Assembly (NCBI GenBank): GCA_000316135.1 | Contig: JH993838.1 | Coordinates: 4,701 to 24,729 of the forward strand | Origin: Trachipleistophora hominis | Taxonomy: Eukaryota; Microsporidia; Pleistophoridae | DNA length: 20,029 nucleotides | Direction of reading: 5' to 3' | Shown: positions 2,895 through 15,794 of the stretch, piece after piece | How the letters are laid out: each line of letters opens with the position of its first letter | Position numbering within the stretch: position 1 is the stretch's first letter | The notes under the pieces: generated by a model | The model's database searches: none | Told to the model about the DNA's origin: nothing | Seen by the model: the letters and a program-made list of their open reading frames with translations, nothing else | Translations under genes and position numbers: made by a program

Positions 2895-2993
2895 TGATAG
2901 TTTATTAAAGGCTCTGCTTTTCTTTAGTGATGGTTTATTAAAGACTTTGCTTTTCTTTAGTGATAGTTTATTAAAGACTTTGCTTGTCTTTAG
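2895..2993. repeat. 33 bp tandem repeat, three copies
   Basis: Three exactly adjacent 33-base units lie at 2895-2927, 2928-2960 and 2961-2993. Each begins TGATRGTTTATTAAAG and ends in TCTTTAG. They differ at only a few positions. A partial echo (agtttattaaagac) occurs near 3146. Function is unknown. Confidence 0.9.
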
Positions 2994-3019
2994 TAAATTT
3001 ACCTCGTGACAAGTAGAAT

Positions 3020-4700: not shown

Positions 4701-4785
4701 TATCATCATCTCCAGTACGTAAAGTATAAAATATTTTACTAACCCTAAGAACTAAATAAAGTAACTTCCTTTTAAGATGGCATAG

Positions 4786-4925
4786 ATATCATGTGATTAC
4801 GTATCATGAATATCATGTGATTATTACGTATCATAAATATCGTGTGATAACGTATTATAACTATTGTGTGATTACGTATTATAACTATTGAGTGATTACG
4901 TATTATAAATATTGAGTGATTATGT
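4786..4925. repeat. Degenerate tandem repeat of about 24 bp, six copies
   Basis: Successive units follow the pattern ATATCATGTGATTACGTATC or its drifted form CTATTGWGTGATTACGTATT, with one unit carrying a 3-base insertion. Copies drift progressively from left to right. The sequence runs directly into the next repeat block. Confidence 0.85.
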
Positions 4926-5018
4926 CTTCTATATTATCACTTAAATATCTCCTATATTATCATTTAATTACCTTCTATATTATCACTTAAATACGTATTA
5001 TGATTATCATTTAAATAC
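4926..5018. repeat. Second tandem repeat of 23-24 bp, four copies
   Basis: Units at 4926-4948, 4949-4971, 4972-4994 and 4995-5018 share CTATATTATCAYTTAAWTAY; the last unit is the most diverged. It abuts the preceding repeat block on one side and the G-free tract on the other. Confidence 0.8.
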
Positions 5019-5032
5019 TTTTTTATTACTAG

Positions 5033-5364
5033 CCCTTCTTATATTACTAACCACCCCTCCTTATTATTCCTATCAATTCCTCATTACCCCTCTATATCAA
5101 TTTTTTAATTACTACCCCCAATATCCTTACCCATCCTATCCCCTACCCATCCCAATCTCTATCCTCTTACCCATCCCAATCTCCCCTCATTACCCATCTC
5201 AATCTCTAACCCTTACCCATCTCAATCTCCCCTCATTACCCCTACCTATCTAATCACTATCCCTAACCATTACCCATCCCAATCTCTCACCTATCAATAC
5301 TAACCCTTTATATTTCTAATAACAACCCTTTTTTACTTAATCTCCTTAATACTAACCTCAAACC
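5033..5364. repeat. 332-base tract with no G on the + strand
   Basis: Not one G occurs between 5033 and 5364. The tract is built of irregular copies of TTACCCATCCCAATCTC and related C/T/A words. It forms the 3' flank of the Sub2/UAP56 gene, contains its stop codon and covers its last ten or so codons. Confidence 0.95.
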
Positions 5365-6526
5365 GTTCCTGCACCTCATTCAAAACAACAATATCCTCCT
5401 CATTACAAATAAAACTAACAGCCGTACCCCTAGTCTCAAAACGACCAGCCCTTCCAACACGATGCAAATACGTCTGTGCATCCTCAGCCATATCATAATT
5501 CACCACCAAATTAATCTCAGCAATATCAATGCCACGCGCCATAAGATTGGTGGTCACCAAGAACCTGTAATTAAGGTTCTTGAACGACATGAAGCGTTGC
5601 ATACGCTCATTCGTATCATAATCGCTTGTTATTGCCACTGCAGGCAGGCCCTTCGTCTTGAGGTGCTCGCAGAGCACCTCCACACGCCTTTTATCCCTGC
5701 AGAATATCACGCACTGACTGATATCACGTATGCTGTCGATCAGGCCGATGAGCTTGTCCCGCTTGTTGTCTTCAATTACGTTGACGTAGCCCTGCTCAAG
5801 GCCGTGCAACGTGAGCTTGCGCTCCTCATCCACCTGCAACACGAAAGGATTGCGCACCATCAGCAGGCACGTACTCTTCATTTCGTTGGAGAGCGTGGCC
5901 GTGAAGAGCATCGTTTGCTTGGCGACCGGCGTCCTATAAATAATGCGCTGCACTGTCCACCGTGACGAGAGGGACGACAGGATGCTGTCCACCTCATCAA
6001 TTATGAGTATCCGCAGGGCGGATACGTCCAGCGCACCGCGCTGTATAAGATCGAACAGCCTGCCCGGCGTGCCCACCACCACATCAACACGCGCCTTCAG
6101 TTTCTCTACGTCACCGTTTACGTCCACGCCGCCAAAGACCATCTCAACCTTCAGATCGGTGTAACTCATGAAGCGCCTGAACTCGTTCGCAATCTGCACC
6201 ACCATTTCCTTGGTGTTGGCCACCGCCATTACCTGCACGCGTGCAGGTGATACGTCCTCTGCGTTGATGCGCTGCAGAGCGCTGAGCACGAACACCACGG
6301 TCTTGCCCGTGCCACTCTTGGCCTGGCATATTATGTCAGCGCCCAGTACTGCCTTGGGAATGACCTGCTGTTGAACTGCAGAGGGATGTTCCAGGTTGGC
6401 ATCGCGTATTGCTTTTATGAGCTCGTCTTTTAGGAGCAGCTCCGGGAATGAGGAGATTACGTCCGTATTTTTCGTTTTTTCTGTTTGGACTGTTTCTGCG
6501 TATTCGATCAGTTCCTCGTCAGACAT
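5333..6526 (-). CDS. SUB2: DEAD-box RNA helicase Sub2/UAP56 (DDX39), spliceosome and mRNA export
   Basis: ATP-dependent RNA helicase that acts in the nucleus in spliceosome assembly and, through THO/TREX, loads export factors on nascent mRNA. The 397-residue product has all core motifs in order: Q-motif region HPSAVQQQVIP (47-57), Walker A AKSGTGKT (69-76), GG (132-133), TPGR (153-156), motif II DEVD (177-180), motif III TAT (209-211), motif IV VIFC (273-276), motif V around TTNLMARGIDI (325-335) and motif VI HRVGRAGR (355-362). The SFPELLLKDEL start, the KLTLHGLEQ segment, NYDMAEDAQTYLHR and the QERFEVSI end identify the Sub2/UAP56 subfamily. Differences from that subfamily are DEVD for the usual DECD, NTKEM in motif Ia, and HRVGRAGR where UAP56 usually has HRVARAGR. 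The C-terminus stops about ten residues early, inside the G-free tract. It lies downstream of RPB1 in the same orientation. Confidence 0.92.
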   Translation of the reverse strand: MSDEELIEYAETVQTEKTKNTDVISSFPELLLKDELIKAIRDANLEHPSAVQQQVIPKAVLGADIICQAKSGTGKTVVFVLSALQRINAEDVSPARVQVMAVANTKEMVVQIANEFRRFMSYTDLKVEMVFGGVDVNGDVEKLKARVDVVVGTPGRLFDLIQRGALDVSALRILIIDEVDSILSSLSSRWTVQRIIYRTPVAKQTMLFTATLSNEMKSTCLLMVRNPFVLQVDEERKLTLHGLEQGYVNVIEDNKRDKLIGLIDSIRDISQCVIFCRDKRRVEVLCEHLKTKGLPAVAITSDYDTNERMQRFMSFKNLNYRFLVTTNLMARGIDIAEINLVVNYDMAEDAQTYLHRVGRAGRFETRGTAVSFICNEEDIVVLNEVQERFEVSIKEIK

Positions 6527-6533
6527 TTTCTGA

Positions 6534-6537
6534 GGGG
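6534..6537 (-). promoter_or_regulatory. CCCC motif just upstream of the Sub2/UAP56 ATG
   Basis: On the minus strand TACCCCTC lies with its CCCC 8-11 bases before the start codon. CCC- or GGG-type signals close to the ATG are known in microsporidian genes, and RPB1 has a similar motif at a similar distance. Its role here is inferred. Confidence 0.5.
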
Positions 6538-6539
6538 TA

Positions 6540-7135
6540 CTTAAAATGAATGTTTTAATGTTGGGGGGGTAGGAATATGGGGGGGGGGTGTAGTAGGGAT
6601 AATATGAGTTAGGGGATTAGTATGGTAGGAATAGTATGGGTTAGGGTATAGTATGGGGATAGTATGGTTTAGGGTATAGCATGAGTTAGGGGATAATATG
6701 GGTAGGAATATGAGGGGGTATAGTAGTATAGGTTAGTAATAGGGATAGGGTCTGTTAGGGTTAGTAGTAAAGGGTTAGAGTTAAAGGGTTATTATTACTA
6801 ATAATAAATAAGGTATAGTAATAAAAGGTATAAGTAAAGAATAACTTAATAGATTAGTAGGGTAGATGATCAATTAGGGTAGATGATTAATAGGGTAGAT
6901 AATAATTAATAGTAGGATAGATAATTAGTAGTAGGGTAGATGATTAGTAGTAATTACTATTAACTAACCTATTAATAATTAACTAACATATTTGAAATTA
7001 ACTACCCTACCGATCATCTATCCTACTGATCATTTATCCTAATTATTAACTAACCTAATTATTATCTTATCCTAATTATTATCTTATCCTACTGATCATC
7101 TAACCTACTAACTACAATCCATAATCTTATCCTAT
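6540..7135. repeat. Spacer module: C-poor G-rich arm then G-poor C-rich arm
   Basis: From 6540 to about 6955 the + strand has only a handful of C and is made of words such as GGGTTAGGGTATAGTATGG and later TAGGGTAGATGATTAAT. From about 6960 to 7135 it flips to words such as CTACCCTACCGATCATCTATC. The second arm is largely the reverse complement of the inner part of the first (6845-6955), so a long imperfect hairpin centred near 6960 is possible. G runs of 7 (6563-6569) and 10 (6579-6588) lie next to the helicase promoter. Confidence 0.85.
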
Positions 7136-7434
7136 ACTAATCTATTAATTACTACGTCCTAATAAATACGTTTAAAGATACTCATCACTTAATTAATGTA
7201 TAATGAAAGGAATAGATCACAGTAAAGTATTTATTAATAGAATAGAATGAGAGTAGTAGGTAATAGTTAGGGTTAGATGGTAGGGTTAGAGGTTAACTAA
7301 TCATTATCACTACATCAATCATTACATCAATCACTTAAACCACAGTCTAACAACTACCACAATCATTACCATAACAACTACATCAATCACTTAAACCACA
7401 GTCTAACAATTACCACAACAACTACATCAACCAA
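7136..7434. repeat. Second G-rich to C-rich flip and a 56 bp-spaced direct repeat, 3' flank of RPB1
   Basis: 7240-7300 is G-rich and C-poor (GGTAATAGTTAGGGTTAGATG). From about 7300 on into RPB1 the sequence is C-rich and almost G-free. CATCAATCACTTAAACCACA plus flanking bases occurs at 7323-7353 and again, 56 bases later, at 7379-7409. No gene is seen in this stretch. Confidence 0.8.
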
Positions 7435-10400
7435 CTAATCCTTATCAGCCTTCTCATCCTTCTCTTCCTTATCCTCCCCATCATCCTGCCCATACAACGG
7501 TGATACTCCTCCCTTAACATACCGCGTACTAGTCGGTGAATAATACCTAACACTCGTAGGAGAATAGGAAGGACTGGCCCGCGTATAATACTGCGGACTG
7601 CCAGCACTACGCCCAGGATTATACCGGGGACTGGCCGGTGAATAGGAAGGACTGGTAGGACTGTACCTGGAACTGCCGAGCACGTACTTCGCATTCATGG
7701 GCACGTACTTAGGACTGGTGGGCGTATACGCTGGTGAGGTTGGTGAGTATGAAGGGCTGCTTATGCGGCTGTACGTAGGACTGGCAGGGGTGTATCGCGG
7801 GGAGTATCGTGCAGCCGGGCTCAGCACACCATCCGTGCACGTGCCACTCTCCGGTGACCACAGCACGTTCTGACGCGGCGCGTGCTCAAACTCAAACGCC
7901 TTCTCGCCCAGCGCATGAACATCCAGCAGCAGTTCTACGTTGCCCGTGCCCAGCGATGCTATCTGCCCGCTCATTACGCTCTCACTGATCGTGCGCATGT
8001 TCGTGTGCTCTGAGCCTGCGGCTGCGTTCAGAAGGATCTCGACCGTTTCTTCGAACGTGCATCTCATCAGGCAGCTGCTGCCCTTCTTGTTGAAGCCGTG
8101 ACGAGTTATGCCGAGCAGTACGCCCGTGCTCGTCATTATGTCGCCGAGCAGCATAAGATGCCGCTGGTTCACGTAGCTGCCATCACTTTCTATCACCTTC
8201 TTGATTTCCTTGATGAGAACGTTACGAGCAGCCTCTATGCCCAGCACAGCGCATACCTCCGTAAGATCGTTGCTGTAGCAGTCCGTGATGTACTCGTTGT
8301 GCAGTATTTCCAAGAGGTTAGTACCACTGGTCTGCAACATCCATCTATTGGTGGTTGTAGGATTGGTTGTAGTTGTAGGATTGGTCGTATTGTTAGTGGT
8401 ATTGTTAGTGGTATGGTCAATGGTATTGTCAATGGTATTGTCAGTGGTATTGTCAATGGTATGGTTAAGGTTATTATCTTTATCCTTATAAATGGCCTTA
8501 TCAACAGCCTTATCAATACTACCATCACTACCCCCTGCCCCATTACCCCCAACCAAACCATCATTACCCCCAACCAAACCATCAATACCCCTACCATCAA
8601 CATCACTACCCCCAACCAAACCATCACTACCCTTACTATCAACACCCCCCGCCCCATCAACCAAACCATCATTACCCTCATCCTCAAGCAAATAAACCCT
8701 GCTAATCCCTTTAACACCCCCTATCCGCACACCAACCACCCAATCCATCACCTTCCTAACCCTCCCATCATCACACTCCCCAACCATCCTCATCCTCACA
8801 ACATACTCAGCCGCATTCTCATCAGTCATAACAACCTCAACATCAATCCTCTGCTTAACCATGGCCTTAACCATCCCAAGCGTAACACCGTACCTCACCA
8901 TTCTATTCCTGCTCAGCTTAACACGTAACACCCACGGACTGAGCATATCTGCCCGTTCCTCGTCAGGGAACAGGTAATGCGCACGCACAAATTCTCTGTC
9001 CTCAGGTATTACGGTGTCCGTAACGTTGGGGTCGTAAACTACGGCTATGCTTTCTATCACGTGTTTTAGCTCCTTGTACTCGATCGTGTTCTTTACCATG
9101 TTGGCGTTCTTTAGGTCGGCGTATTCTTTTTTTAGTGTGAGCAGCATGCTCGGCGTTTTTATGCTCTTGGCAACGTTTATCAGCTCTTTGAGACGGGGCA
9201 CGCCCATCGTTATTGTGCTGGCTATGCCTGCGTAGTGAAAGGTGTTGAGGGTCATCTGTGTGGCAGGTTCTCCTATGCTCTGACTGGCAAGTGTGCCCAC
9301 CATCTCACCAGGGCACACCAGTGCCCTGTAGTACTTCTCACGTATTACGTTGCTCATTCTTATGAGAGTCTTTAGATCAAGCAGGCGTAGTTTATCAGCC
9401 TTTAGTTTGAGATAGAAGCTTAGCACTCTGTTAGGAGAGAAGGTGAGAAGGTCCTTTAGCACGGTGTTCTTGTTGATTGTAGTATTGGGGATGGTTGTGT
9501 TGGGGATGGTTGTGTTGGGGATGGTTGTATTAGTGATAGTAGTGAGACTAGGGTTATGGTTAGTAGTGAGACTAGGGTTATTAGGGCTAAGGGTAGTTCT
9601 AATATTAATCCTATCCTCCCCATCAATACTACTAACCCTATCAATACTACTAACCCTATCCTCCCCATCAATATTACTAACCCTATCCTCCCCATCGATA
9701 TTACTAACCCTATCCTCCCCATCGATATTACTAACCCTATCCTCCCTATCAATATTACTAACCTTACCCTCCCCCTTATCAACCACTCCACCAGTAAATT
9801 CGTTGTACACCCGTTCAAAATTAAACGGCAAATAATAATCACGCCCACAAATCTCCACACGCTCAACCCTCCCACCATCAAATCCATCATCACCATACAA
9901 AAAACTAACAACATCCCTCTCACTCCTCACACTGCCATCAAACGCAATCTGACAGTTCTCCATGCTCTTAATCAACCTGCGCTGTATATACCCCGTCTCT
10001 GCAGTCTTAACAGCCGTATCTATAAGGCCCTCCCGTCCACCCATCGCATGAAAAAAGAACTCGTGCGCACGCAGACCGGCGAGGTACGAATTTTCTACGA
10101 AGCCGCGGCTTGCCGGCCGGTCATCGTCCTTGTGGAAATGCGGGAGGGTGCGCTGGTTGCTGAATGCGATGCGGTGGCCCTCCACGTTCTGCTGGCCCAC
10201 ACACGCCGTCATCTGCGAAATGTTGATGAGTGAGCCTTTGCTGCCCGCCATCACCATCATGCGCACGTTGTTGGCGGTGCCCAGGCCGGCATTTGCGCTG
10301 CTGCCGCTCACGTCACGTGCACGGTTGAGTGCCTGGCTGATTCTGCTCTCGAACGTTTCGCGCAGGTTCATGCCAGGCATGCGCCGCAGCGTGCCGCTGC

Positions 10401-12633
10401 GTGCATCGGCAATGAGTGCACGCACCTCCTGCTTGCTTGCACGTATCCCCTCCATCACATCGCGCAGCGTGCACTCGTCAGCGATCGTATCTCCTACGCC
10501 CATCGTGAACCCTGCCTGCAGCAGGTAGCCGTTCACCACGCGTTGCAGGCTGTCGAAGAAGCGCACGATGTGCTTGTTCTCCAGCGCAAGCACGTGCACA
10601 AGACTGCCCTGGCTCGTTCCTACGACCTTCTTGTCGATGCATCCCTTGATGAGTATGCCGTGCTTTATGAGCACGTCACCGCGCTCGTAGTTTATGCAGG
10701 GCAGCGTGCACGAGAACATTTGTTTACCCGTGAACAGCCGTCTTGGTCTCAGCACTGCCGGTCTAACGGTATTAGTAGGTGGAGGGTTAGCGTTAGTGAT
10801 AGGGTTAGTATTGATAGTATTGATAGTATTGGTGTTAGTATTGGTGTTAGTGATAGGGTTAGTATTGATAATATTAGAGTTGATAGTATACGTGTTAGTA
10901 GAGTGGGTGGTATCATAGTTGATTAAAATACCGTTACTATCCTTACCCTTGTTAATGTTATCTTCACCACTATAACCATAACCATATCCCCTATCATCAC
11001 CACTATAACCATCAACTCTACCCCAGCCATCATTACCATTACCATATACCCTATCATCATTACCATATCCCCTATCATCACTACCAACCACCTTGTAAAG
11101 CAAGTGCTGCCCTTCATACCACTCAATAAACACCCCATCATCCGTCATCTTACGCACCCCTACCAGACTGTCCTGCACAATGCCCATCACAGGCTTGTTG
11201 CCCTGGCACGACAGCACATTACGGTCCACCCCACAAATATTCTCAAGCTCTGCTCGCGTATTGTGGCTCTGCGGCATGTGCAGGTTCATCTCATCACCAT
11301 CAAAGTCCGCGTTGTACGGCGACGTAACACTCAAATTAAGACGGAACGTCTTTCCCTTCATCACACGCGCACGATGCGCCATCATGCTCATCTTGTGCAA
11401 CGAGGGCTGGCGGTTGAACAGCACAACATCGCCCGCCGTCATGTGGCGCTCTACCACGCATCCCTCCGTCAGCAGAATGCTGTTGCGGTTGAAGCGCAGG
11501 TCAATGCGCTGCCCGTCCTCGCGCGTAACAAAATTGGCGCCCGGCCATTTGTTGGGCCCGTTACGCACCAGCGCCTCAAGACGCGCCTTGTTGAACGCCG
11601 TCACGTGCTCAGGGAACGTGTGGATCCGTGCAATTTGCTCGGGCACGCCCACCTCGCACAACGAAATGTTGCTGTCCGGCGATATTACGCTGCGCGCGCT
11701 GAAATCTACGCGCTTGCCCATCAGGTTGCCGCGCACGCGGCCCTCCTTGCCCTTCAGGCGCGCGCTCAGGCTCTTCAGCGGCCGGCCGCTCTTCTGCAGG
11801 CTCTGCGGCAGCCCCGGTATGTTGTTGTCCATCAGCGTTGCTACGTGGTACTGCAGGAGACTCTCGTAGTCACGGATGATGTGGCCGGGCGCACCCTCAC
11901 GCTCGTACTTCGCAAGGTTGGCGTTCGCCTTCACAATGTCCGCCAGCTTGTGCGTGAGATCGTCCTCGCCGCGCAGCATGCCCTCGAGCACTACGCTCGG
12001 GCGCACCGCCGGCGGTGGCACATTGAGCACGCTGATGATCATCCACTCCGGCCGCGCGTACTGCTCGTCAAAGCCGAGCGCTTCGCACTCCTCCGTGCTG
12101 ATGCGCTTAAAGACGGTGTGCACGCGCTCACCGTTCAGGATCACCTTTCCCTCCGTGTTGTCCTCGCCCCTGATGAACGCAATCAGCGACAGCCCGTCGC
12201 GCTTGATCAGCGGCTGCTTCGACTGGCAGTGCATGCACTGCGTCTTGCCCTTGCACAGCCCCCAGAAATAACTCAGCCCCTGCCTGTGAACGCCCTCCTT
12301 GTGCACGTCGTACGCTTTGATACGGCTGCAGTAGAAACACACGGTCTCAAGCAGCTTCTTGATTTTGTTCATGTACCCCACGTGAAACACCGGCCGTGTG
12401 AGCTCAATGTGTCCGAAGTGGCCCACACACGTTAAGTTGCTCTGCCCGCACGTTGCGCACAGATACTGCCGTTCGGTCGTGCCCAGCCTGAGATCGATCA
12501 GCCCGCCCTCCTTGGGCGCTTGGTTGGAGAGCGTCTCTGGATGGTCAATACGCACCACGGAGGATGCGCGTAGCTCCTGCGGAGAGAAAAGACCGAATTG
12601 TATGCTCTTTATGCGTTTTTTTTGGAGTTGCAT
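7435..12633 (-). CDS. RPB1: RNA polymerase II largest subunit RPB1, with three in-frame low-complexity inserts
   Basis: Catalytic subunit of nuclear RNA polymerase II. Residues are numbered from the first ATG of the frame (12681); I prefer Met17 at 12633, because MQLQKKRI...FGLFSPQE is the usual RPB1 start and a CCC motif sits just before it. The clamp zinc site is C75, C78, C85, H88, with further cysteines at 115, 118, 149 and 152. The lid/rudder region is 305-336. The active site NADFDGDEMN is 457-466 (D459, D461, D463 bind Mg2+). The bridge helix is about 861-908 (FFFHAMGGREGLID). The trigger loop is about 1128-1178, with H1149 of LNTFHYAG equivalent to the catalytic His. The CTD is 1626-1721, and the protein ends in an acidic Lys/Glu/Asp tail. 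Low-complexity inserts interrupt 531-642, 966-1072 and 1335-1445; without them the chain is about 1400 residues. No stop or frame change occurs in more than 5.2 kb. Confidence 0.95.
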   Translation of the reverse strand: MQLQKKRIKSIQFGLFSPQELRASSVVRIDHPETLSNQAPKEGGLIDLRLGTTERQYLCATCGQSNLTCVGHFGHIELTRPVFHVGYMNKIKKLLETVCFYCSRIKAYDVHKEGVHRQGLSYFWGLCKGKTQCMHCQSKQPLIKRDGLSLIAFIRGEDNTEGKVILNGERVHTVFKRISTEECEALGFDEQYARPEWMIISVLNVPPPAVRPSVVLEGMLRGEDDLTHKLADIVKANANLAKYEREGAPGHIIRDYESLLQYHVATLMDNNIPGLPQSLQKSGRPLKSLSARLKGKEGRVRGNLMGKRVDFSARSVISPDSNISLCEVGVPEQIARIHTFPEHVTAFNKARLEALVRNGPNKWPGANFVTREDGQRIDLRFNRNSILLTEGCVVERHMTAGDVVLFNRQPSLHKMSMMAHRARVMKGKTFRLNLSVTSPYNADFDGDEMNLHMPQSHNTRAELENICGVDRNVLSCQGNKPVMGIVQDSLVGVRKMTDDGVFIEWYEGQHLLYKVVGSDDRGYGNDDRVYGNGNDGWGRVDGYSGDDRGYGYGYSGEDNINKGKDSNGILINYDTTHSTNTYTINSNIINTNPITNTNTNTNTINTINTNPITNANPPPTNTVRPAVLRPRRLFTGKQMFSCTLPCINYERGDVLIKHGILIKGCIDKKVVGTSQGSLVHVLALENKHIVRFFDSLQRVVNGYLLQAGFTMGVGDTIADECTLRDVMEGIRASKQEVRALIADARSGTLRRMPGMNLRETFESRISQALNRARDVSGSSANAGLGTANNVRMMVMAGSKGSLINISQMTACVGQQNVEGHRIAFSNQRTLPHFHKDDDRPASRGFVENSYLAGLRAHEFFFHAMGGREGLIDTAVKTAETGYIQRRLIKSMENCQIAFDGSVRSERDVVSFLYGDDGFDGGRVERVEICGRDYYLPFNFERVYNEFTGGVVDKGEGKVSNIDREDRVSNIDGEDRVSNIDGEDRVSNIDGEDRVSSIDRVSSIDGEDRINIRTTLSPNNPSLTTNHNPSLTTITNTTIPNTTIPNTTIPNTTINKNTVLKDLLTFSPNRVLSFYLKLKADKLRLLDLKTLIRMSNVIREKYYRALVCPGEMVGTLASQSIGEPATQMTLNTFHYAGIASTITMGVPRLKELINVAKSIKTPSMLLTLKKEYADLKNANMVKNTIEYKELKHVIESIAVVYDPNVTDTVIPEDREFVRAHYLFPDEERADMLSPWVLRVKLSRNRMVRYGVTLGMVKAMVKQRIDVEVVMTDENAAEYVVRMRMVGECDDGRVRKVMDWVVGVRIGGVKGISRVYLLEDEGNDGLVDGAGGVDSKGSDGLVGGSDVDGRGIDGLVGGNDGLVGGNGAGGSDGSIDKAVDKAIYKDKDNNLNHTIDNTTDNTIDNTIDHTTNNTTNNTTNPTTTTNPTTTNRWMLQTSGTNLLEILHNEYITDCYSNDLTEVCAVLGIEAARNVLIKEIKKVIESDGSYVNQRHLMLLGDIMTSTGVLLGITRHGFNKKGSSCLMRCTFEETVEILLNAAAGSEHTNMRTISESVMSGQIASLGTGNVELLLDVHALGEKAFEFEHAPRQNVLWSPESGTCTDGVLSPAARYSPRYTPASPTYSRISSPSYSPTSPAYTPTSPKYVPMNAKYVLGSSRYSPTSPSYSPASPRYNPGRSAGSPQYYTRASPSYSPTSVRYYSPTSTRYVKGGVSPLYGQDDGEDKEEKDEKADKD
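7519..7806 (-). other. RPB1 C-terminal heptad domain
   Basis: Residues 1626-1721 hold roughly a dozen heptads derived from YSPTSPS. Only one is perfect (1673-1679) and YSPTSPA at 1645-1651 is near perfect; others are worn (YVPMNAK, YVLGSSR) or stretched (YNPGRSAGSPQ). It is shorter than the yeast CTD of about 26 repeats. It should still serve as the platform for capping and processing factors. Ser5 survives in most repeats and Ser2 in fewer. Confidence 0.9.
8347..8679 (-). repeat. RPB1 insert 3: in-frame skew-flip low-complexity segment
   Basis: Residues about 1335-1445, between the LLEDEGN and RWMLQTSGTNLLEIL anchors, where yeast RPB1 has only a short variable loop before its VLETDGVNL. On the + strand 8347-8480 is G/T-rich (GGTATTGTCAATGGTATTG repeats) and 8490-8680 is C/A-rich (CCCCCAACCAAACCATCA repeats). 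The protein reads as a Gly/Asp half with DGLVGG repeats followed by a DNTIDNTTN-type half. The C-rich bias continues to about 8960, into conserved coding sequence. Confidence 0.85.
9466..9786 (-). repeat. RPB1 insert 2: in-frame skew-flip low-complexity segment
   Basis: Residues about 966-1072, replacing a segment upstream of the trigger loop. The + strand is G/T-rich from 9466 to 9598 (15-base units GGGGATGGTTGTGTT) and C/T-rich and nearly G-free from 9600 to 9786 (27-base units containing ACTAACCCTATCCTCCCCAT). The protein is a 9-residue repeat RVSNIDGED, about five copies, then a Thr/Asn-rich part ending in TTIPN pentads. Identical neighbouring units suggest recent expansion. Confidence 0.88.
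10756..11091 (-). repeat. RPB1 insert 1: in-frame skew-flip low-complexity segment
   Basis: Residues about 531-642, between the LLYKV and RPAVLRPRRLFTGKQ anchors; yeast has about 15 residues at this point. The + strand is G/T-rich from 10756 to 10922 (GATAGGGTTAGTATTGATAG) and C/A-rich from 10923 to 11091 (CCATATCCCCTATCATCACC). The encoded protein goes from Gly/Asp/Tyr-rich (DDRGYGND, GYGYGYSG) to Thr/Asn repeats (TNTNTNTIN). It has the same order of arms as the other two inserts. Confidence 0.86.
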
Positions 12634-12762: not shown

Positions 12763-13045
12763 TTTTCTCGATAGAAGGGTAAATAATAGGGGTGTTAAAG
12801 AGGGGGTTGTTTAAAATGGGGTTAGAGGGTTAATATGCATTATATGGTTATATAAGAATGTTATTTTGTATTTGATATGGTTAGAGATTGTAGTGATGAA
12901 TGATTGTTTTTGGTATTTAGTAGGGAGTGTAGTTATAGATGATCATTATTTTGTAGATGTTAGGGATTGTAGTTATGGATGATCATTATTTTGTAGATGT
13001 TAGGGATTGTGGTTATGGATGATTATTTTTTGGTACGGAATGTTA
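12763..13045. repeat. G/T-rich C-poor 5' flank of RPB1 with a 40 bp tandem repeat
   Basis: The sequence from about 12770 is G/T/A-rich with few C, like the arm upstream of the helicase gene. It ends in a 40-base repeat TAGGGATTGTAGTTATGGAT with its continuation: full copies at 12921-12960 and 12961-13000, a partial copy at 13001-13029, and a more diverged copy before them. Beyond 13050 the sequence turns C/T-rich, so the skew flips again. Confidence 0.82.
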
Positions 13046-13548
13046 TTTTATCTTTTAAAAGTTTATTTAATTATCTCCTTCATCACACTACCTAATCAAA
13101 CATACTTCTCTAGAACTATTATTTTTGCCATCCTTTCTTATAACCTTCTATTGCATACCATTGTTACTTTCTACTTTAACTTATACTTTGTACCTCCTTT
13201 TAAAGGCTAAAGGTCTGCTCAATTGTCTCCTTCTTACGTACCACCTGATAATTTCCTTCTAATACAAAGTTAACCACAAACCTTAAATAAGAGTTGTTCT
13301 TTCTTCATAACAATTGTAGTTCTGCTACAACCATTTCTATAAAACTATAATATAAAATAGGATATTAATTAAATAATGAGTAGGATTTGTAATTTTGCTA
13401 TATATTGTAATAAAGATGGTTAAAATATGCTTAGAGGAGATGATAATTTTAGGATCTTTAATTTCTATTATGGTGATGACACAGGACACGTATTTGAAGT
13501 TTGTTTTTAAAGCTGGTTGACTGATTCATGAATTATTATTGGTATCAG
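13046..13548. other. AT-rich spacer, C/T-leaning, no gene recognised
   Basis: 13066-13270 is pyrimidine-leaning, and TTTAATTATCTCCTTCAT near 13068 also occurs near 3479. A 67-codon frame at 13007-13210 (+) is aromatic and hydrophobic throughout and looks like chance. Nothing else was seen. Confidence 0.5.
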
Positions 13549-13670
13549 GGTAATGATTTAATTCTTTGTACAACCCTGTGCTAATACAATATCTAGGATA
13601 ATGGTTCAATTCCTTGTACAATTCTGTGCTAATACAATATCTAGGATAATGATTTAATTCCTTATAATCA
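13549..13670. repeat. 47-48 bp tandem repeat, 2.6 copies, at the 3' end of the family gene
   Basis: Units at 13549-13595, 13596-13643 and a partial at 13644-13670 share GGATAATGATTTAATTC, then TGTACAA, then TGTGCTAATACAATATCTA. The last unit stops a few bases short of the stop codon of the neighbouring gene. Confidence 0.85.
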
Positions 13671-13676
13671 TTCTTA

Positions 13677-15794
13677 TCAAACATTAGGTGCTATATGTGT
13701 ACAAAATACCATTTGTTTTATAAAAAATAATATTTCGTTGCAGGGCCGAAATTTCCAATGGTTGATAAGTGTACAGATGCTAACATAAAGTTCATTATAT
13801 GATTTAAAGCTAAAAGAATCGTAAATTTGATCAAACGTTGCTGGTGATATCGGTCTTAGTGGATATAATTCTCTTGGTACATTATACGCTATAAAATACG
13901 GTGTGCAGAAACGCGATAGCTGCGACATCAAATACTCAACGTTTTTGGTATTTCTCAGATCACCCAGCTTGAATAATCTTGCTGGAAATTCGTAAAAATG
14001 TGCCACGAAGAAAAAATAGAAGAATGCGGTGCTAAACGGATTAATTCGTGTATTTGTTGGATTAACGTATAAAATATCGTTTGTGACCAAAAAAAGATTT
14101 TCGGTCTTGCACAACCAAAGATACGTGCTCACTACGTAAGCATGGCAACTTAATGACATAAGAAATGGTACTAGTAGCAGCTCTCGCATGAATAAAACCA
14201 ATGAGAGCACTTGATGATTATCTCGAGCGCTGATGTTATTTTGATCATGGTAAATACGTCGATCAATATATCTGAGCATGCGATGAAGATTCGAAACGGA
14301 ATAAATGATAATGAGAATATGATTGCTTTTCATGTAGAGAAATACACCAGGTTTACGGTACAACTCATCTTGGAGAGAGAAGAGCTCAGGCAACAATTTC
14401 ATTTTTAGATCTTTGAGTTCTTCCCTTAAAATACGTAGAAAATATCTTGCGAGATTTTTGAGGTGTTGTTTACAAAATCGTACGCTATACTGTGTTTTTA
14501 CATCTAATGGCTTAGGCATATGATCGTACAATAGATCCAACACTTGTATATAGAAGCGAATATCATACTCAATTGAATTACGATAGGTTTTCCGTCCGGT
14601 AAATATTAGACATGGTTCTATTTCGTCCTCTAGTATCATAAAAATTATTTTTGAACTGATATTTTTTCTTAAATTGTTTGTAACACTTATAATCTTCAAT
14701 TTATTCAGTAGCTTTGGAAGCTCGTCACGTTCCCATTCGGGCTCTCTCCTAAACAAATCTGTTGCTGACTGTGATATTCCTGACCCGTCCAAACTCTCCA
14801 TTTGTACTGTTGTTATAAATGTCATAAAAACGTTGAGTTTGTTGTCTCGTCGTCTTTTTAAACAGTAAAGTTTTGAATAATTGCTTTTCCGAAGTATTTC
14901 AGCAACGTTTACCAGTGTTGAAGATAATATATATTGTAATCCTATTGTGGTTGTTTGATATGTAAGTATTTTATCTCTGGCTGTACCTAAAGGTATGAAA
15001 ATATTACATATTACTGAGCTACAGAATGTAAATTCAAAGGCGTTTCTTAGAAAATTAACAAAACTTTCATCAAAAATAGGTATTCCACACTTTGATACAG
15101 CCTCTAAATTAATACATGGTACAGTATTCTCCTCTAACATAGTGTGTTCTGGTACCTTTAATTCTATCATCGAGTCAGGATTAGTGCTCCCTTCATCGGT
15201 TGCTTTGACTTTCTTAAGTTTTGTTTCTTTCGTCTTTGAATCATCATTCGGTTGCTCTTTCACGAATTCAGGTGCTTCTGTACTTTTACAGGACCTTTTT
15301 GCCGGTATGTTTGAGCATTCTTGTACACCCGGTGGTTCTGATCCTTTCTGTTCAGCAGTTTTCTCGGTATAATCGAGAACAAATGACAATAGCTGTTCAT
15401 CACAATCATCTGTACTGTCGACTGTGCGTAAATTAGCATCTGCATCGATGACCATATCATCCGCAGAGGTTACGCTTAATAAGTCCGAATTATACGACCA
15501 ACAATCGTTGTCTATTTCAGTCATCATCTCAGTTAGCCCAGTAATCGGATAACTATTCAAAAGATCATCTAACCACGGATCAATTTTAGTACCAGAATTA
15601 CTTTCATTGGTATCGTTTTCACCTGTTCCTAAAATATTGTCTCGCAAGAGTTCAGAACAATCCCAATCGTTTGGTAAAATACTGCAATCGTCTGCGATTG
15701 AACTCAGTCCTGAAATGCTACAAGTTGCGCTTCCATCTACTTCTGTTATTTCTGTCGTCAGATGCATTTTCTTAGTTTTTTTATACACAGGCAT
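13677..15794 (-). CDS. Unrecognised protein, acidic N-terminus plus conserved C-terminal domain (main part of a probably secreted protein)
   Basis: 705 codons, no known family recognised. Residues 1-225 are polar, Ser/Asp-rich and acidic with a short Lys-rich patch (KTKETKLKKVKATD), and look disordered. From about 236 (CGIPIFDESFVNFLR) to the end is a dense, Leu/Phe/Tyr-rich, probably helical domain with hydrophobic stretches near 492-500 and 529-562 that could be buried helices or membrane segments. Residues 492-566 align, with one single-residue gap, to the open frame at the right end of the window, so this is one member of a family. The annotated Met is probably not the true start: the upstream overlapping frame carries a signal peptide and joins this one at a run of seven A. 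Codon use is AT-rich, unlike RPB1 and Sub2. No CCC motif was seen at its ATG. Confidence 0.8.
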   Translation of the reverse strand: MPVYKKTKKMHLTTEITEVDGSATCSISGLSSIADDCSILPNDWDCSELLRDNILGTGENDTNESNSGTKIDPWLDDLLNSYPITGLTEMMTEIDNDCWSYNSDLLSVTSADDMVIDADANLRTVDSTDDCDEQLLSFVLDYTEKTAEQKGSEPPGVQECSNIPAKRSCKSTEAPEFVKEQPNDDSKTKETKLKKVKATDEGSTNPDSMIELKVPEHTMLEENTVPCINLEAVSKCGIPIFDESFVNFLRNAFEFTFCSSVICNIFIPLGTARDKILTYQTTTIGLQYILSSTLVNVAEILRKSNYSKLYCLKRRRDNKLNVFMTFITTVQMESLDGSGISQSATDLFRREPEWERDELPKLLNKLKIISVTNNLRKNISSKIIFMILEDEIEPCLIFTGRKTYRNSIEYDIRFYIQVLDLLYDHMPKPLDVKTQYSVRFCKQHLKNLARYFLRILREELKDLKMKLLPELFSLQDELYRKPGVFLYMKSNHILIIIYSVSNLHRMLRYIDRRIYHDQNNISARDNHQVLSLVLFMRELLLVPFLMSLSCHAYVVSTYLWLCKTENLFLVTNDILYVNPTNTRINPFSTAFFYFFFVAHFYEFPARLFKLGDLRNTKNVEYLMSQLSRFCTPYFIAYNVPRELYPLRPISPATFDQIYDSFSFKSYNELYVSICTLINHWKFRPCNEILFFIKQMVFCTHIAPNV

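What the first reader, a model, noticed from the sequence alone, without database searches (positions are those of the whole stretch)
6540..11091. A recurring G-arm/C-arm skew module in spacers and, three times, inside the RPB1 reading frame
Seen on the + strand: a C-poor, G-rich arm is followed by a G-poor, C-rich arm at 6540-7135, 7240-7434, 8347-8679, 9466-9786 and 10756-11091, always in that order. Two are intergenic and three are in-frame inserts of nearly equal length (333, 321, 336 bases). The word families are alike (GGGTTAG / CTAACCC, GATAGGG / CCCTATC). I know of no described element with this form. Inference: either a mobile or expanding palindromic sequence, or a strand-asymmetric mutational process acting at block boundaries.
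Basis: partly seen in the sequence, partly recalled or inferred. Interest (0 to 1): 0.85.

Follow-up and report, generated by a model that had tools for sequence, protein, structure and literature searches.

The report
Strand-skewed borders of microsporidian gene blocks
In this microsporidian parasite the DNA at the edges of many genes, and around three extra loops in its RNA polymerase gene, has lost nearly all C on one strand or nearly all G, which looks more like the trace of a one-sided mutation process than like a mobile element.

Summary
The interpretation needs changing. In 220 kb read from the same 5.5-Mb genome such arms are common and cluster at gene edges: left flanks tend to be C-rich and right flanks G-rich whatever the gene's direction. 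A "module" is two border arms meeting in a short spacer or loop. It is not a shared palindromic element: the RPB1 arms match their partners no better than strangers, though spacer 6532-7155 holds real inverted repeats.

Part of the skew is at DNA level. In codons whose amino acid is unchanged in Vavraia culicis, the 300 bp 5' of the RPB1 inserts end NNY codons in C 20/65 times, against 68/84 far away. Gene 3' ends lose NNC and gain NNG; 5' ends lose NNG. Vavraia has inserts at the same three loops, of other sequence and length, with the same residue order (third site p 0.056).

Best explanation: strand-specific C>T and A>G change on the strand leaving each constrained block, most likely through transcription; break resection is the chief rival. 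The C arms inside RPB1 are explained least well.

The parts
4926..5460 (+). lone C arm over the 3' flank and 3' end of the minus-strand DEAD-box helicase gene; no G arm to its left in the window
   Evidence: score 153; GC skew -0.66 to -1.0 in 200-bp windows from 4901 to 5500
5333..6526 (-). DEAD-box helicase gene, a constrained block (C arm on its left, G arm on its right)
   Evidence: PF00270 8.5e-37 and PF00271 5.5e-26
6532..6950 (+). G arm upstream of the helicase gene
   Evidence: score 122
6957..7155 (+). C arm; with the G arm forms real inverted repeats, e.g. 6854-6897 / 7068-7111, 75% complementary over 44 nt
   Evidence: score 34; rank 2 of 53; MFE z -10.7 and -6.7 against arm-wise shuffles
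7222..7292 (+). short G arm, marginal (score 23; shuffle maximum 22)
7297..7498 (+). C arm over the 3' flank and last codons of RPB1
   Evidence: score 59
7435..12633 (-). RPB1 (largest RNA polymerase II subunit), 1732 codons from the ATG that aligns with the start of the Vavraia culicis protein
   Evidence: six RNA_pol_Rpb1 domains; 1314 of 1573 aligned residues identical to P0001
8350..8470 (+). insert C, G arm on + strand (coding strand: C arm, T/N-rich residues)
   Evidence: score 28
8496..8935 (+). insert C, C arm on + strand (coding strand: G arm, G/V/D-rich), running about 256 bp past the insert into conserved RPB1 coding sequence
   Evidence: score 143
9472..9596 (+). insert B, G arm on + strand (coding: T/N/P/I-rich, with 15-bp tandem units)
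   Evidence: score 43
9599..9943 (+). insert B, C arm on + strand (coding: D/G/V/R/E/S-rich, with 27-bp tandem units), running about 157 bp past the insert into conserved coding sequence
   Evidence: score 101
10768..10910 (+). insert A, G arm on + strand (coding: T/N/I-rich)
   Evidence: score 44
10962..11164 (+). insert A, C arm on + strand (coding: G/D/Y-rich)
   Evidence: score 58
12770..13033 (+). G arm upstream of RPB1, with 40-bp tandem units at 12880-13032
   Evidence: score 69
13075..13197 (+). weak C arm, score 20, within the range of shuffled sequence

Best explanation
The 'module' is not one element. A constrained block (a gene, or a conserved stretch of RPB1 between disordered loops) tends to carry a C-rich, G-poor border on its left and a G-rich, C-poor border on its right; where two blocks are close, the right border of one meets the left border of the next and a G>C flip results. 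SHOWN in the sequence read: borders of this kind at gene edges whatever the gene's direction; a shift at synonymous sites (3' ends lose NNC and gain NNG on the coding strand, 5' ends lose NNG); the same loss of NNC in unchanged codons 5' of the RPB1 inserts. INFERRED: the cause is strand-specific C>T and A>G substitution on whichever strand runs 5'>3' out of the block, over about 300 bp; unconstrained DNA next to it then drifts to a three-letter composition and grows by tandem duplication, kept in frame by selection inside RPB1. INFERRED, less surely: the strand is exposed by transcription leaving the block, as non-template strand at 3' ends (read-through, R-loops) and of divergent antisense transcripts at 5' ends. 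The three RPB1 inserts are lineage-specific low-complexity loops caught in this process. Why their 3' halves are C arms is not explained by sense transcription and needs antisense transcription inside the gene, an amino-acid bias, or breakage.
For: Left flanks of ORFs (up to 250 bp) have median skew -0.29 (36 of 42 negative), right flanks +0.13 (23 of 37 positive), p 5.9e-8, and 2.0e-7 without the window. Skew decays within 300-400 bp outward. In the 19 highest-GC3 of 39 genes: 3' end NNY_C -0.24 (95% CI -0.35 to -0.14), NNR_G +0.12 (+0.03 to +0.22); 5' end NNR_G -0.25 (-0.35 to -0.16), NNY_C +0.08 (-0.04 to +0.20, so not shown); 4-fold T up and C down at 3' ends, A and C up and G and T down at 5' ends. 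RPB1 unchanged codons 5' of the inserts: NNY C 20/65 against 68/84, Fisher 6e-10; 4-fold C 4/81 against 34/124, p 3e-5. RPB1 G arms exceed the skew expected from amino acids and core codon usage (+0.80, +0.84, +0.81 against +0.33, +0.28, +0.40). Arms inside genes are mostly G on the coding strand, 20 against 6, and 17 against 3 without RPB1 (p 0.0026), which speaks for transcription. Flank skew is stronger in high-GC3 genes (Spearman -0.46 upstream, n 39; +0.39 downstream, n 40). Cytosine deamination of the non-template strand is an accepted cause of such asymmetry (passages of the review PMC10030826); that A>G also exceeds T>C on that strand is recalled.
Against: No substitution was polarised: no DNA of a sister species could be reached, so direction is inferred from composition. 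Non-coding arms have nearly equal A and T (0.32 and 0.34), which pure C>T and A>G would not give. RPB1 C arms lose G at 4-fold sites (0.48 to 0.03) but gain T (0.08 to 0.49), not A. On the 3' side of the inserts the expected loss of G is weak: NNR_G 27/38 against 59/71 (p 0.15), 4-fold G 29/82 against 68/124 (p 0.007). Sense transcription alone cannot give C arms inside RPB1. G>A near start codons can also be selected through mRNA structure (recalled). Expression was not measured; GC3 is a stand-in. Low-GC3 genes show much weaker flanks. Genes are ORF calls; of 9 checked in Pfam 6 pass a curated cut-off. Right flanks without a called neighbour show no skew (9 positive, 9 negative of 18).
Confidence: 0.45

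Rival explanations
1. Recurrent DNA breaks in spacers and in the RPB1 loops: 5'>3' resection leaves the + strand single-stranded on the left and the - strand on the right, and damage there (C and A loss) builds a G(+T) arm left and a C(+A) arm right of each break; repair slippage expands the repeats.
For: Predicts the G>C switch, independent of gene direction, in spacers and inside genes alike, which sense transcription does not. Human meiotic breaks leave ssDNA on the forward strand to the left and the reverse strand to the right, with C>N and A>N on the one and G>N and T>N on the other (passages of PMC7615360). Vavraia culicis keeps SPO11 and 10 of 12 meiotic genes (passages of PMC4435813). 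Tandem repeats lie in the arms.
Against: 61 of 109 arms have no opposite arm within 150 bp and 49 of 109 none within 400 bp (arms cut by the end of a stretch count as unpaired). Arms inside genes favour G on the coding strand, 17 against 3 without RPB1, which a direction-blind process should not. Mean skew is strongest at gene edges and fades outward. The 3' side of the RPB1 inserts shows only weak G loss. SPO11 of Vavraia was not expressed in the stages sampled; TP6A_N was not found in this assembly, but nor was Rad51, so that is not informative.
Confidence: 0.2
2. Selection at sequence level: C-rich promoter tracts (the microsporidian CCC motif), G-rich 3' regions for termination, and in RPB1 linkers that are acidic/glycine-rich first and N/T-rich second for a protein reason.
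For: A CCC motif upstream of genes is described for Trachipleistophora hominis (977 genes) and other microsporidia (passages of PMC3486916). CTAACC occurs 35 times in the 400 bp upstream and 8 downstream of ORFs, GGTTAG 9 and 23. In V. culicis all three inserts have the same order of residue classes (p 0.0012, 0.0002, 0.056), and amino acids with core codon usage give 33-55% of the skew of the RPB1 arms.
Against: A short motif would not make arms with median lengths of 213-306 bp (score cut-offs 20-40), nor shift synonymous sites in the last 200 bp of CDS or in unchanged RPB1 codons. Of the other aligned RPB1 proteins with 25 or more residues at a site, only Binucleata at site A shows this order at p below 0.05.
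Confidence: 0.2
3. A mobile or palindromic element, or head-to-head joining of telomere-like ends, inserted in spacers and in RPB1.
For: G>C order and TTAG-rich words recall telomere joins; microsporidian telomere repeats include a 5-mer, TTAG and TTAGGG (passages of PMC12449221); GGGTTA is over-represented in non-coding arms, 72 against 17; some spacers hold inverted repeats.
Against: TTAGGG itself is only mildly enriched (26 against 16); RPB1 arms are not palindromic and align only weakly with other arms of the set compared; the skew spreads into conserved coding sequence at synonymous sites, which insertion cannot do; more than half of the arms are unpaired within 150 bp.
Confidence: 0.05
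4. Ordinary low-complexity growth in an AT-rich genome, with skew by chance.
For: 26.6 arms, against 89, remain when letters are shuffled within 500-bp blocks, which keeps local composition.
Against: 0.0 arms when G and C are relabelled at random; the link to gene edges and the synonymous shifts are not chance.
Confidence: 0.05

Closest known systems
GC skew at promoters and terminators (R-loop / divergent-transcription skew of vertebrate genes)
   Same: skew changes sign at the promoter; bidirectional promoters show two inverted peaks, negative upstream and positive downstream (passages of PMC3882496); C loss from the exposed non-template strand is the usual explanation (passages of PMC10030826)
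   Different: here the skew reaches -0.91 and +1.00 over flanks of up to 300 bp, sits before the start codon and at the 3' end of the CDS rather than just after the start, shifts synonymous sites, and recurs around in-frame loops inside one gene; transcription was not measured
Strand-switching mutation footprint of resected double-strand breaks (human meiotic hotspots)
   Same: C and A lost on the forward strand, exposed left of the break, and G and T changes for the reverse strand, exposed on the right (passages of PMC7615360): the same polarity as the G>C flip
   Different: no breaks mapped here; arms cluster at gene edges and more than half are unpaired; hundreds of bases are almost free of one letter, not a small excess of mutations
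GC and AT skew of Encephalitozoon cuniculi chromosome ends
   Same: strand asymmetry in a microsporidian, ascribed to replication or transcription (passages of PMC4704409)
   Different: that skew runs over chromosome-end regions; this one flips at single genes and spacers
Low-complexity loops in fungal and microsporidian proteins
   Same: the RPB1 inserts lie where S. pombe has loops of 8, 27 and 15 residues and are made in part of tandem units
   Different: two-part composition with a strand skew at DNA level that extends beyond the insert

Membership tests
Promoter/terminator GC skew from transcription | skew sign fixed relative to gene edges on the coding strand | tested here: met
   upstream 300 bp median -0.25 (27 of 39 negative), downstream +0.15 (31 of 40 positive)
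Promoter/terminator GC skew from transcription | stronger in expressed genes | tested here: inconclusive
   only GC3 as a stand-in: Spearman -0.46 and +0.39
Promoter/terminator GC skew from transcription | arms inside genes follow the coding strand | tested here: inconclusive
   17 G against 3 C arms outside RPB1 fits; 3 G and 3 C arms in RPB1 do not
Promoter/terminator GC skew from transcription | RNA:DNA hybrids or antisense RNA at the arms | not testable with these tools
   no transcriptome or DRIP data held
Break-resection mutation footprint | paired arms switching strand at a centre | tested here: inconclusive
   spacers 13 G>C against 4 C>G, but 61 of 109 arms have no opposite arm within 150 bp
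Break-resection mutation footprint | breaks or ssDNA at the centre | not testable with these tools
   no break maps held
Palindromic or mobile element (MITE-like) | cognate arms complementary | tested here: not met
   RPB1 inserts rank 25, 13 and 33 of 53; met for spacer 6532-7155 (rank 2)
Palindromic or mobile element (MITE-like) | same sequence at several sites | tested here: not met
   best alignment of RPB1 arms to any other arm of the 27-pair set scores 16-25.5; the rest of the genome was not searched
Palindromic or mobile element (MITE-like) | target-site duplications | not tested
   no call looked for them
Telomere join or interstitial telomere | exact telomere repeats (TTAGGG or TTAGG) | tested here: not met
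   TTAGGG 26 against 16, TTAGG 61 against 50 expected in non-coding arms; the telomere repeat of this species is not known to me
Intein or intron in RPB1 | self-splicing protein domain or spliceosomal signals | not tested
   Pfam lists no intein family in RPB1 at E 0.001; splice sites were not examined; the V. culicis protein carries inserts at the same loops

The most novel reading that the evidence does not exclude
Recurrent single-strandedness at the borders of constrained blocks, through breaks or through transcription out of the blocks, writes C-free and G-free DNA over hundreds of bases, inside genes as well as between them, and so makes new protein: paired acidic-glycine and N/T-rich loops in RPB1, renewed independently in this species and in Vavraia culicis at the same three loops. 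Mutation direction, not the protein's need, would then set the composition of new disordered loops.
Probability: 0.2. Interest if true: 0.8.

Novelty: new variant of a known kind. Interest (0 to 1): 0.52.

Why it matters
Strand asymmetry at gene borders is known, but (recalled) usually mild. Here it is so strong that whole arms nearly lack one letter and codon choice at gene ends is overwritten. If it is mutational, this genome is a natural recorder of where DNA is single-stranded, readable at the scale of single genes, and it links a mutational bias to the birth of disordered loops in an essential enzyme. It also warns that codon usage and amino-acid composition near gene ends in such genomes should not be read as selection without a check of strand skew.

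Tried and rejected
Palindrome test of adjacent opposite arms (27 pairs): real for a few spacers, not for RPB1. RNA folding: 6532-7155 is strongly structured; the three RPB1 modules fold somewhat better than arm-wise shuffles (z -1.5 to -4.4 over both strands), but those shuffles do not keep the tandem units, so no structure is claimed. Telomere idea: rejected on word counts. Simple C>T deamination as the whole story: rejected for non-coding arms because A and T are nearly equal and for RPB1 C arms because T, not A, replaces G. Loss of uracil glycosylase as a cause: PF03167 gives no match in the assembly and HhH-GPD gives two, but Rad51 and TP6A_N also give none, so this assembly, parts of which are withheld, cannot show absence. 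'Always G>C' as a genome rule: rejected, 17 against 10. Papers: of the searches I saw the listings and beginnings of abstracts; of PMC3486916, PMC12449221, PMC7615360, PMC10030826, PMC3882496, PMC4435813 and PMC4704409 I saw passages around search terms, and of PMC4654818 passages and section 7. None of what I saw describes this pattern in microsporidia; that is no proof that it is unprinted. Arm cut-offs and the amino-acid classes of the order test were chosen after seeing the window; results without the window are given where I have them. The RPB1 alignment used 27 of the 120 listed homologues.

Full report
What the window is. The window holds a DEAD-box helicase gene (5333-6526, minus), RPB1 (7435-12633, minus) and AT-rich sequence. 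The best hit to RPB1 is that of Vavraia culicis (P0001; 1314 of 1573 aligned residues identical), so the organism is a microsporidian near Vavraia; no call names it. The assembly G000 has 5.5 Mb in 119 contigs. With the window I used 236.7 kb of it at first (203.6 kb not withheld) and 256.7 kb after L034 and L035 came (220.3 kb not withheld).

The observation. Scoring +1 for one letter and -3 for the other gives 13 arms of score 20 or more in the window, 11 of them 25 or more; the five places of the finding are all there. Shuffled windows reach at most 22 (30 Markov shuffles), so 7222-7292 (23) is marginal, 13075-13197 (20) within chance and 8350-8470 (28) moderately above it. In the first set, 89 arms of score 25 or more cover 25.4 kb, median 243 bp; random relabelling of G and C gives 0.0 on average in 10 runs, shuffling inside 500-bp blocks 26.6 on average in 5 runs.

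Order. Because the reverse complement of G>C is again G>C, the order does not depend on the strand read. In all sequence, 17 junctions with gaps of 150 bp or less are G>C and 10 are C>G (p 0.25). In spacers it is 13 against 4 (p 0.049; without the window 10 against 3, p 0.09); inside ORFs of 100 aa or more it is 3 against 0 in the window but 1 against 6 elsewhere. This fits one rule: C on the left and G on the right of a block. A short block gives C>G across itself, a short spacer G>C. But 61 of 109 arms have no opposite arm within 150 bp, so most arms are single borders.

Gene edges. The flanks of up to 250 bp left of ORFs have median skew -0.29 (36 of 42 negative), right +0.13 (23 of 37 positive), in both gene directions (left/upstream 17 of 22 negative, left/downstream 19 of 20 negative, right/upstream 10 of 17 positive, right/downstream 13 of 20 positive). 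The effect decays within 300-400 bp and is extreme in some high-GC3 genes (upstream -0.91, downstream +1.00 for the helicase). Low-GC3 genes show less, and right flanks with no called neighbour show none (9 and 9 of 18).

Synonymous sites. At gene 3' ends the coding strand loses NNC and gains NNG; at 5' ends it loses NNG. In the 19 highest-GC3 of 39 genes the shifts are -0.24, +0.12 and -0.25, with confidence intervals that exclude zero; the fourth expected shift, more NNC at 5' ends, is +0.08 and its interval includes zero. All 39 genes, and 36 without the window, show the same signs, with most shifts smaller. So at least part of the skew is at DNA level. The pattern is what C>T with A>G on the strand leaving the block would give, but no change was polarised.

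RPB1. The three inserts fall in loops of 8, 27 and 15 residues in S. pombe; here they are 108, 113 and 111, in V. culicis 78, 72 and 24, so near-equal length is not conserved. V. culicis inserts differ in sequence, but G, D, E, V come before N, T, S, P, I at all three (p 0.0012, 0.0002, 0.056). Of the other 26 proteins aligned, those with 25 or more residues at a site show this order only in Binucleata at site A (p 0.004; Edhazardia p 0.057). In codons whose residue is unchanged in V. culicis, the 300 bp 5' (coding) of the inserts have NNY ending in C 20 of 65 against 68 of 84 far away (6e-10), and 4-fold C 4 of 81 against 34 of 124; NNR ending in G is little changed (32/36 against 59/71). On the 3' side NNR G is 27/38 (p 0.15) and 4-fold G 29/82 against 68/124 (p 0.007). 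So the G arms spread clearly into conserved sequence, the C arms only weakly. Amino acids and core codon usage account for 33-55% of the skew of the RPB1 arms.

Inside other genes. Arms inside genes are G on the coding strand 17 times and C 3 times outside RPB1 (p 0.0026). That points to transcription. The G>C modules of RPB1 are unusual in this sample: 3 of 4 short-gap G>C junctions inside ORFs.

Not one element. Cognate arms of RPB1 inserts are no more complementary than strangers. Four of the 17 G>C pairs are (6532-7155 in the window, two in L027, one in L028), and 6532-7155 folds strongly through repeats such as 6854-6897 / 7068-7111. Non-coding arms share AGGGTTAGAGG-like words; coding arms much less; TTAGGG itself is only mildly enriched.

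Mechanism. I favour strand-specific change of C and A on the outgoing strand, exposed by transcription, as the cause of the gene-edge arms (0.45). Breaks with resection predict the switch better, inside and outside genes, and match the polarity reported for human meiotic hotspots (PMC7615360, passages), but not the many unpaired arms and the coding-strand bias (0.2). Against both: nearly equal A and T in non-coding arms and T instead of A in RPB1 C arms. Selection on promoter and terminator tracts plus a protein-level order in RPB1 remains possible (0.2). Existing strand-specific RNA-seq of V. culicis (PMC4435813, passages) could decide.

Noticed in passing
   Followed up: yes
non-coding arms in the sequence read; 400-bp flanks of ORFs: AGGGTTAGAGG-like words (as CTAACC upstream of genes, 35 against 9 GGTTAG; as GGTTAG downstream, 23 against 8 CTAACC), perhaps a factor site related to the microsporidian CCC motif.
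   Followed up: partly
window 7435-7900: The RPB1 C-terminal repeat is degenerate here (one exact YSPTSPS) and in V. culicis, unlike Encephalitozoon or Antonospora in the alignment.
   Followed up: no
window 13677-15794: 705-aa ORF, GC 0.35, no Pfam match at E 0.001 and no strong skew at its edges (down -0.25, up +0.03); perhaps a lineage-specific gene.
   Followed up: no
window 2895-2994, 4782-4922, 13543-13663: Tandem repeats of 33, 24 and 48 bp without strong strand skew.
   Followed up: no
G000 assembly: No match to UDG (PF03167), Rad51 (PF08423) or TP6A_N (PF04406), two to HhH-GPD (PF00730); assembly gaps or withheld parts may be the reason.
   Followed up: partly
L023 2163-4934, L028 2651-5203, L019 5379-6833: Other genes with an internal C arm on the coding strand: a SIR2-family protein, an EF-Tu/EF-G-like GTPase (its C arm ends where the EFG_C match begins; that match is just below the curated cut-off) and an ORF with a weak PFF1_TM match.
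   Followed up: partly
non-coding G arms (52 arms, 385 remaining C): The C left in G arms are more often preceded by A (1.45 times expected) and less often by T (0.61), unlike distal intergenic C (1.03 and 0.93): a possible context preference of the process.
   Followed up: partly
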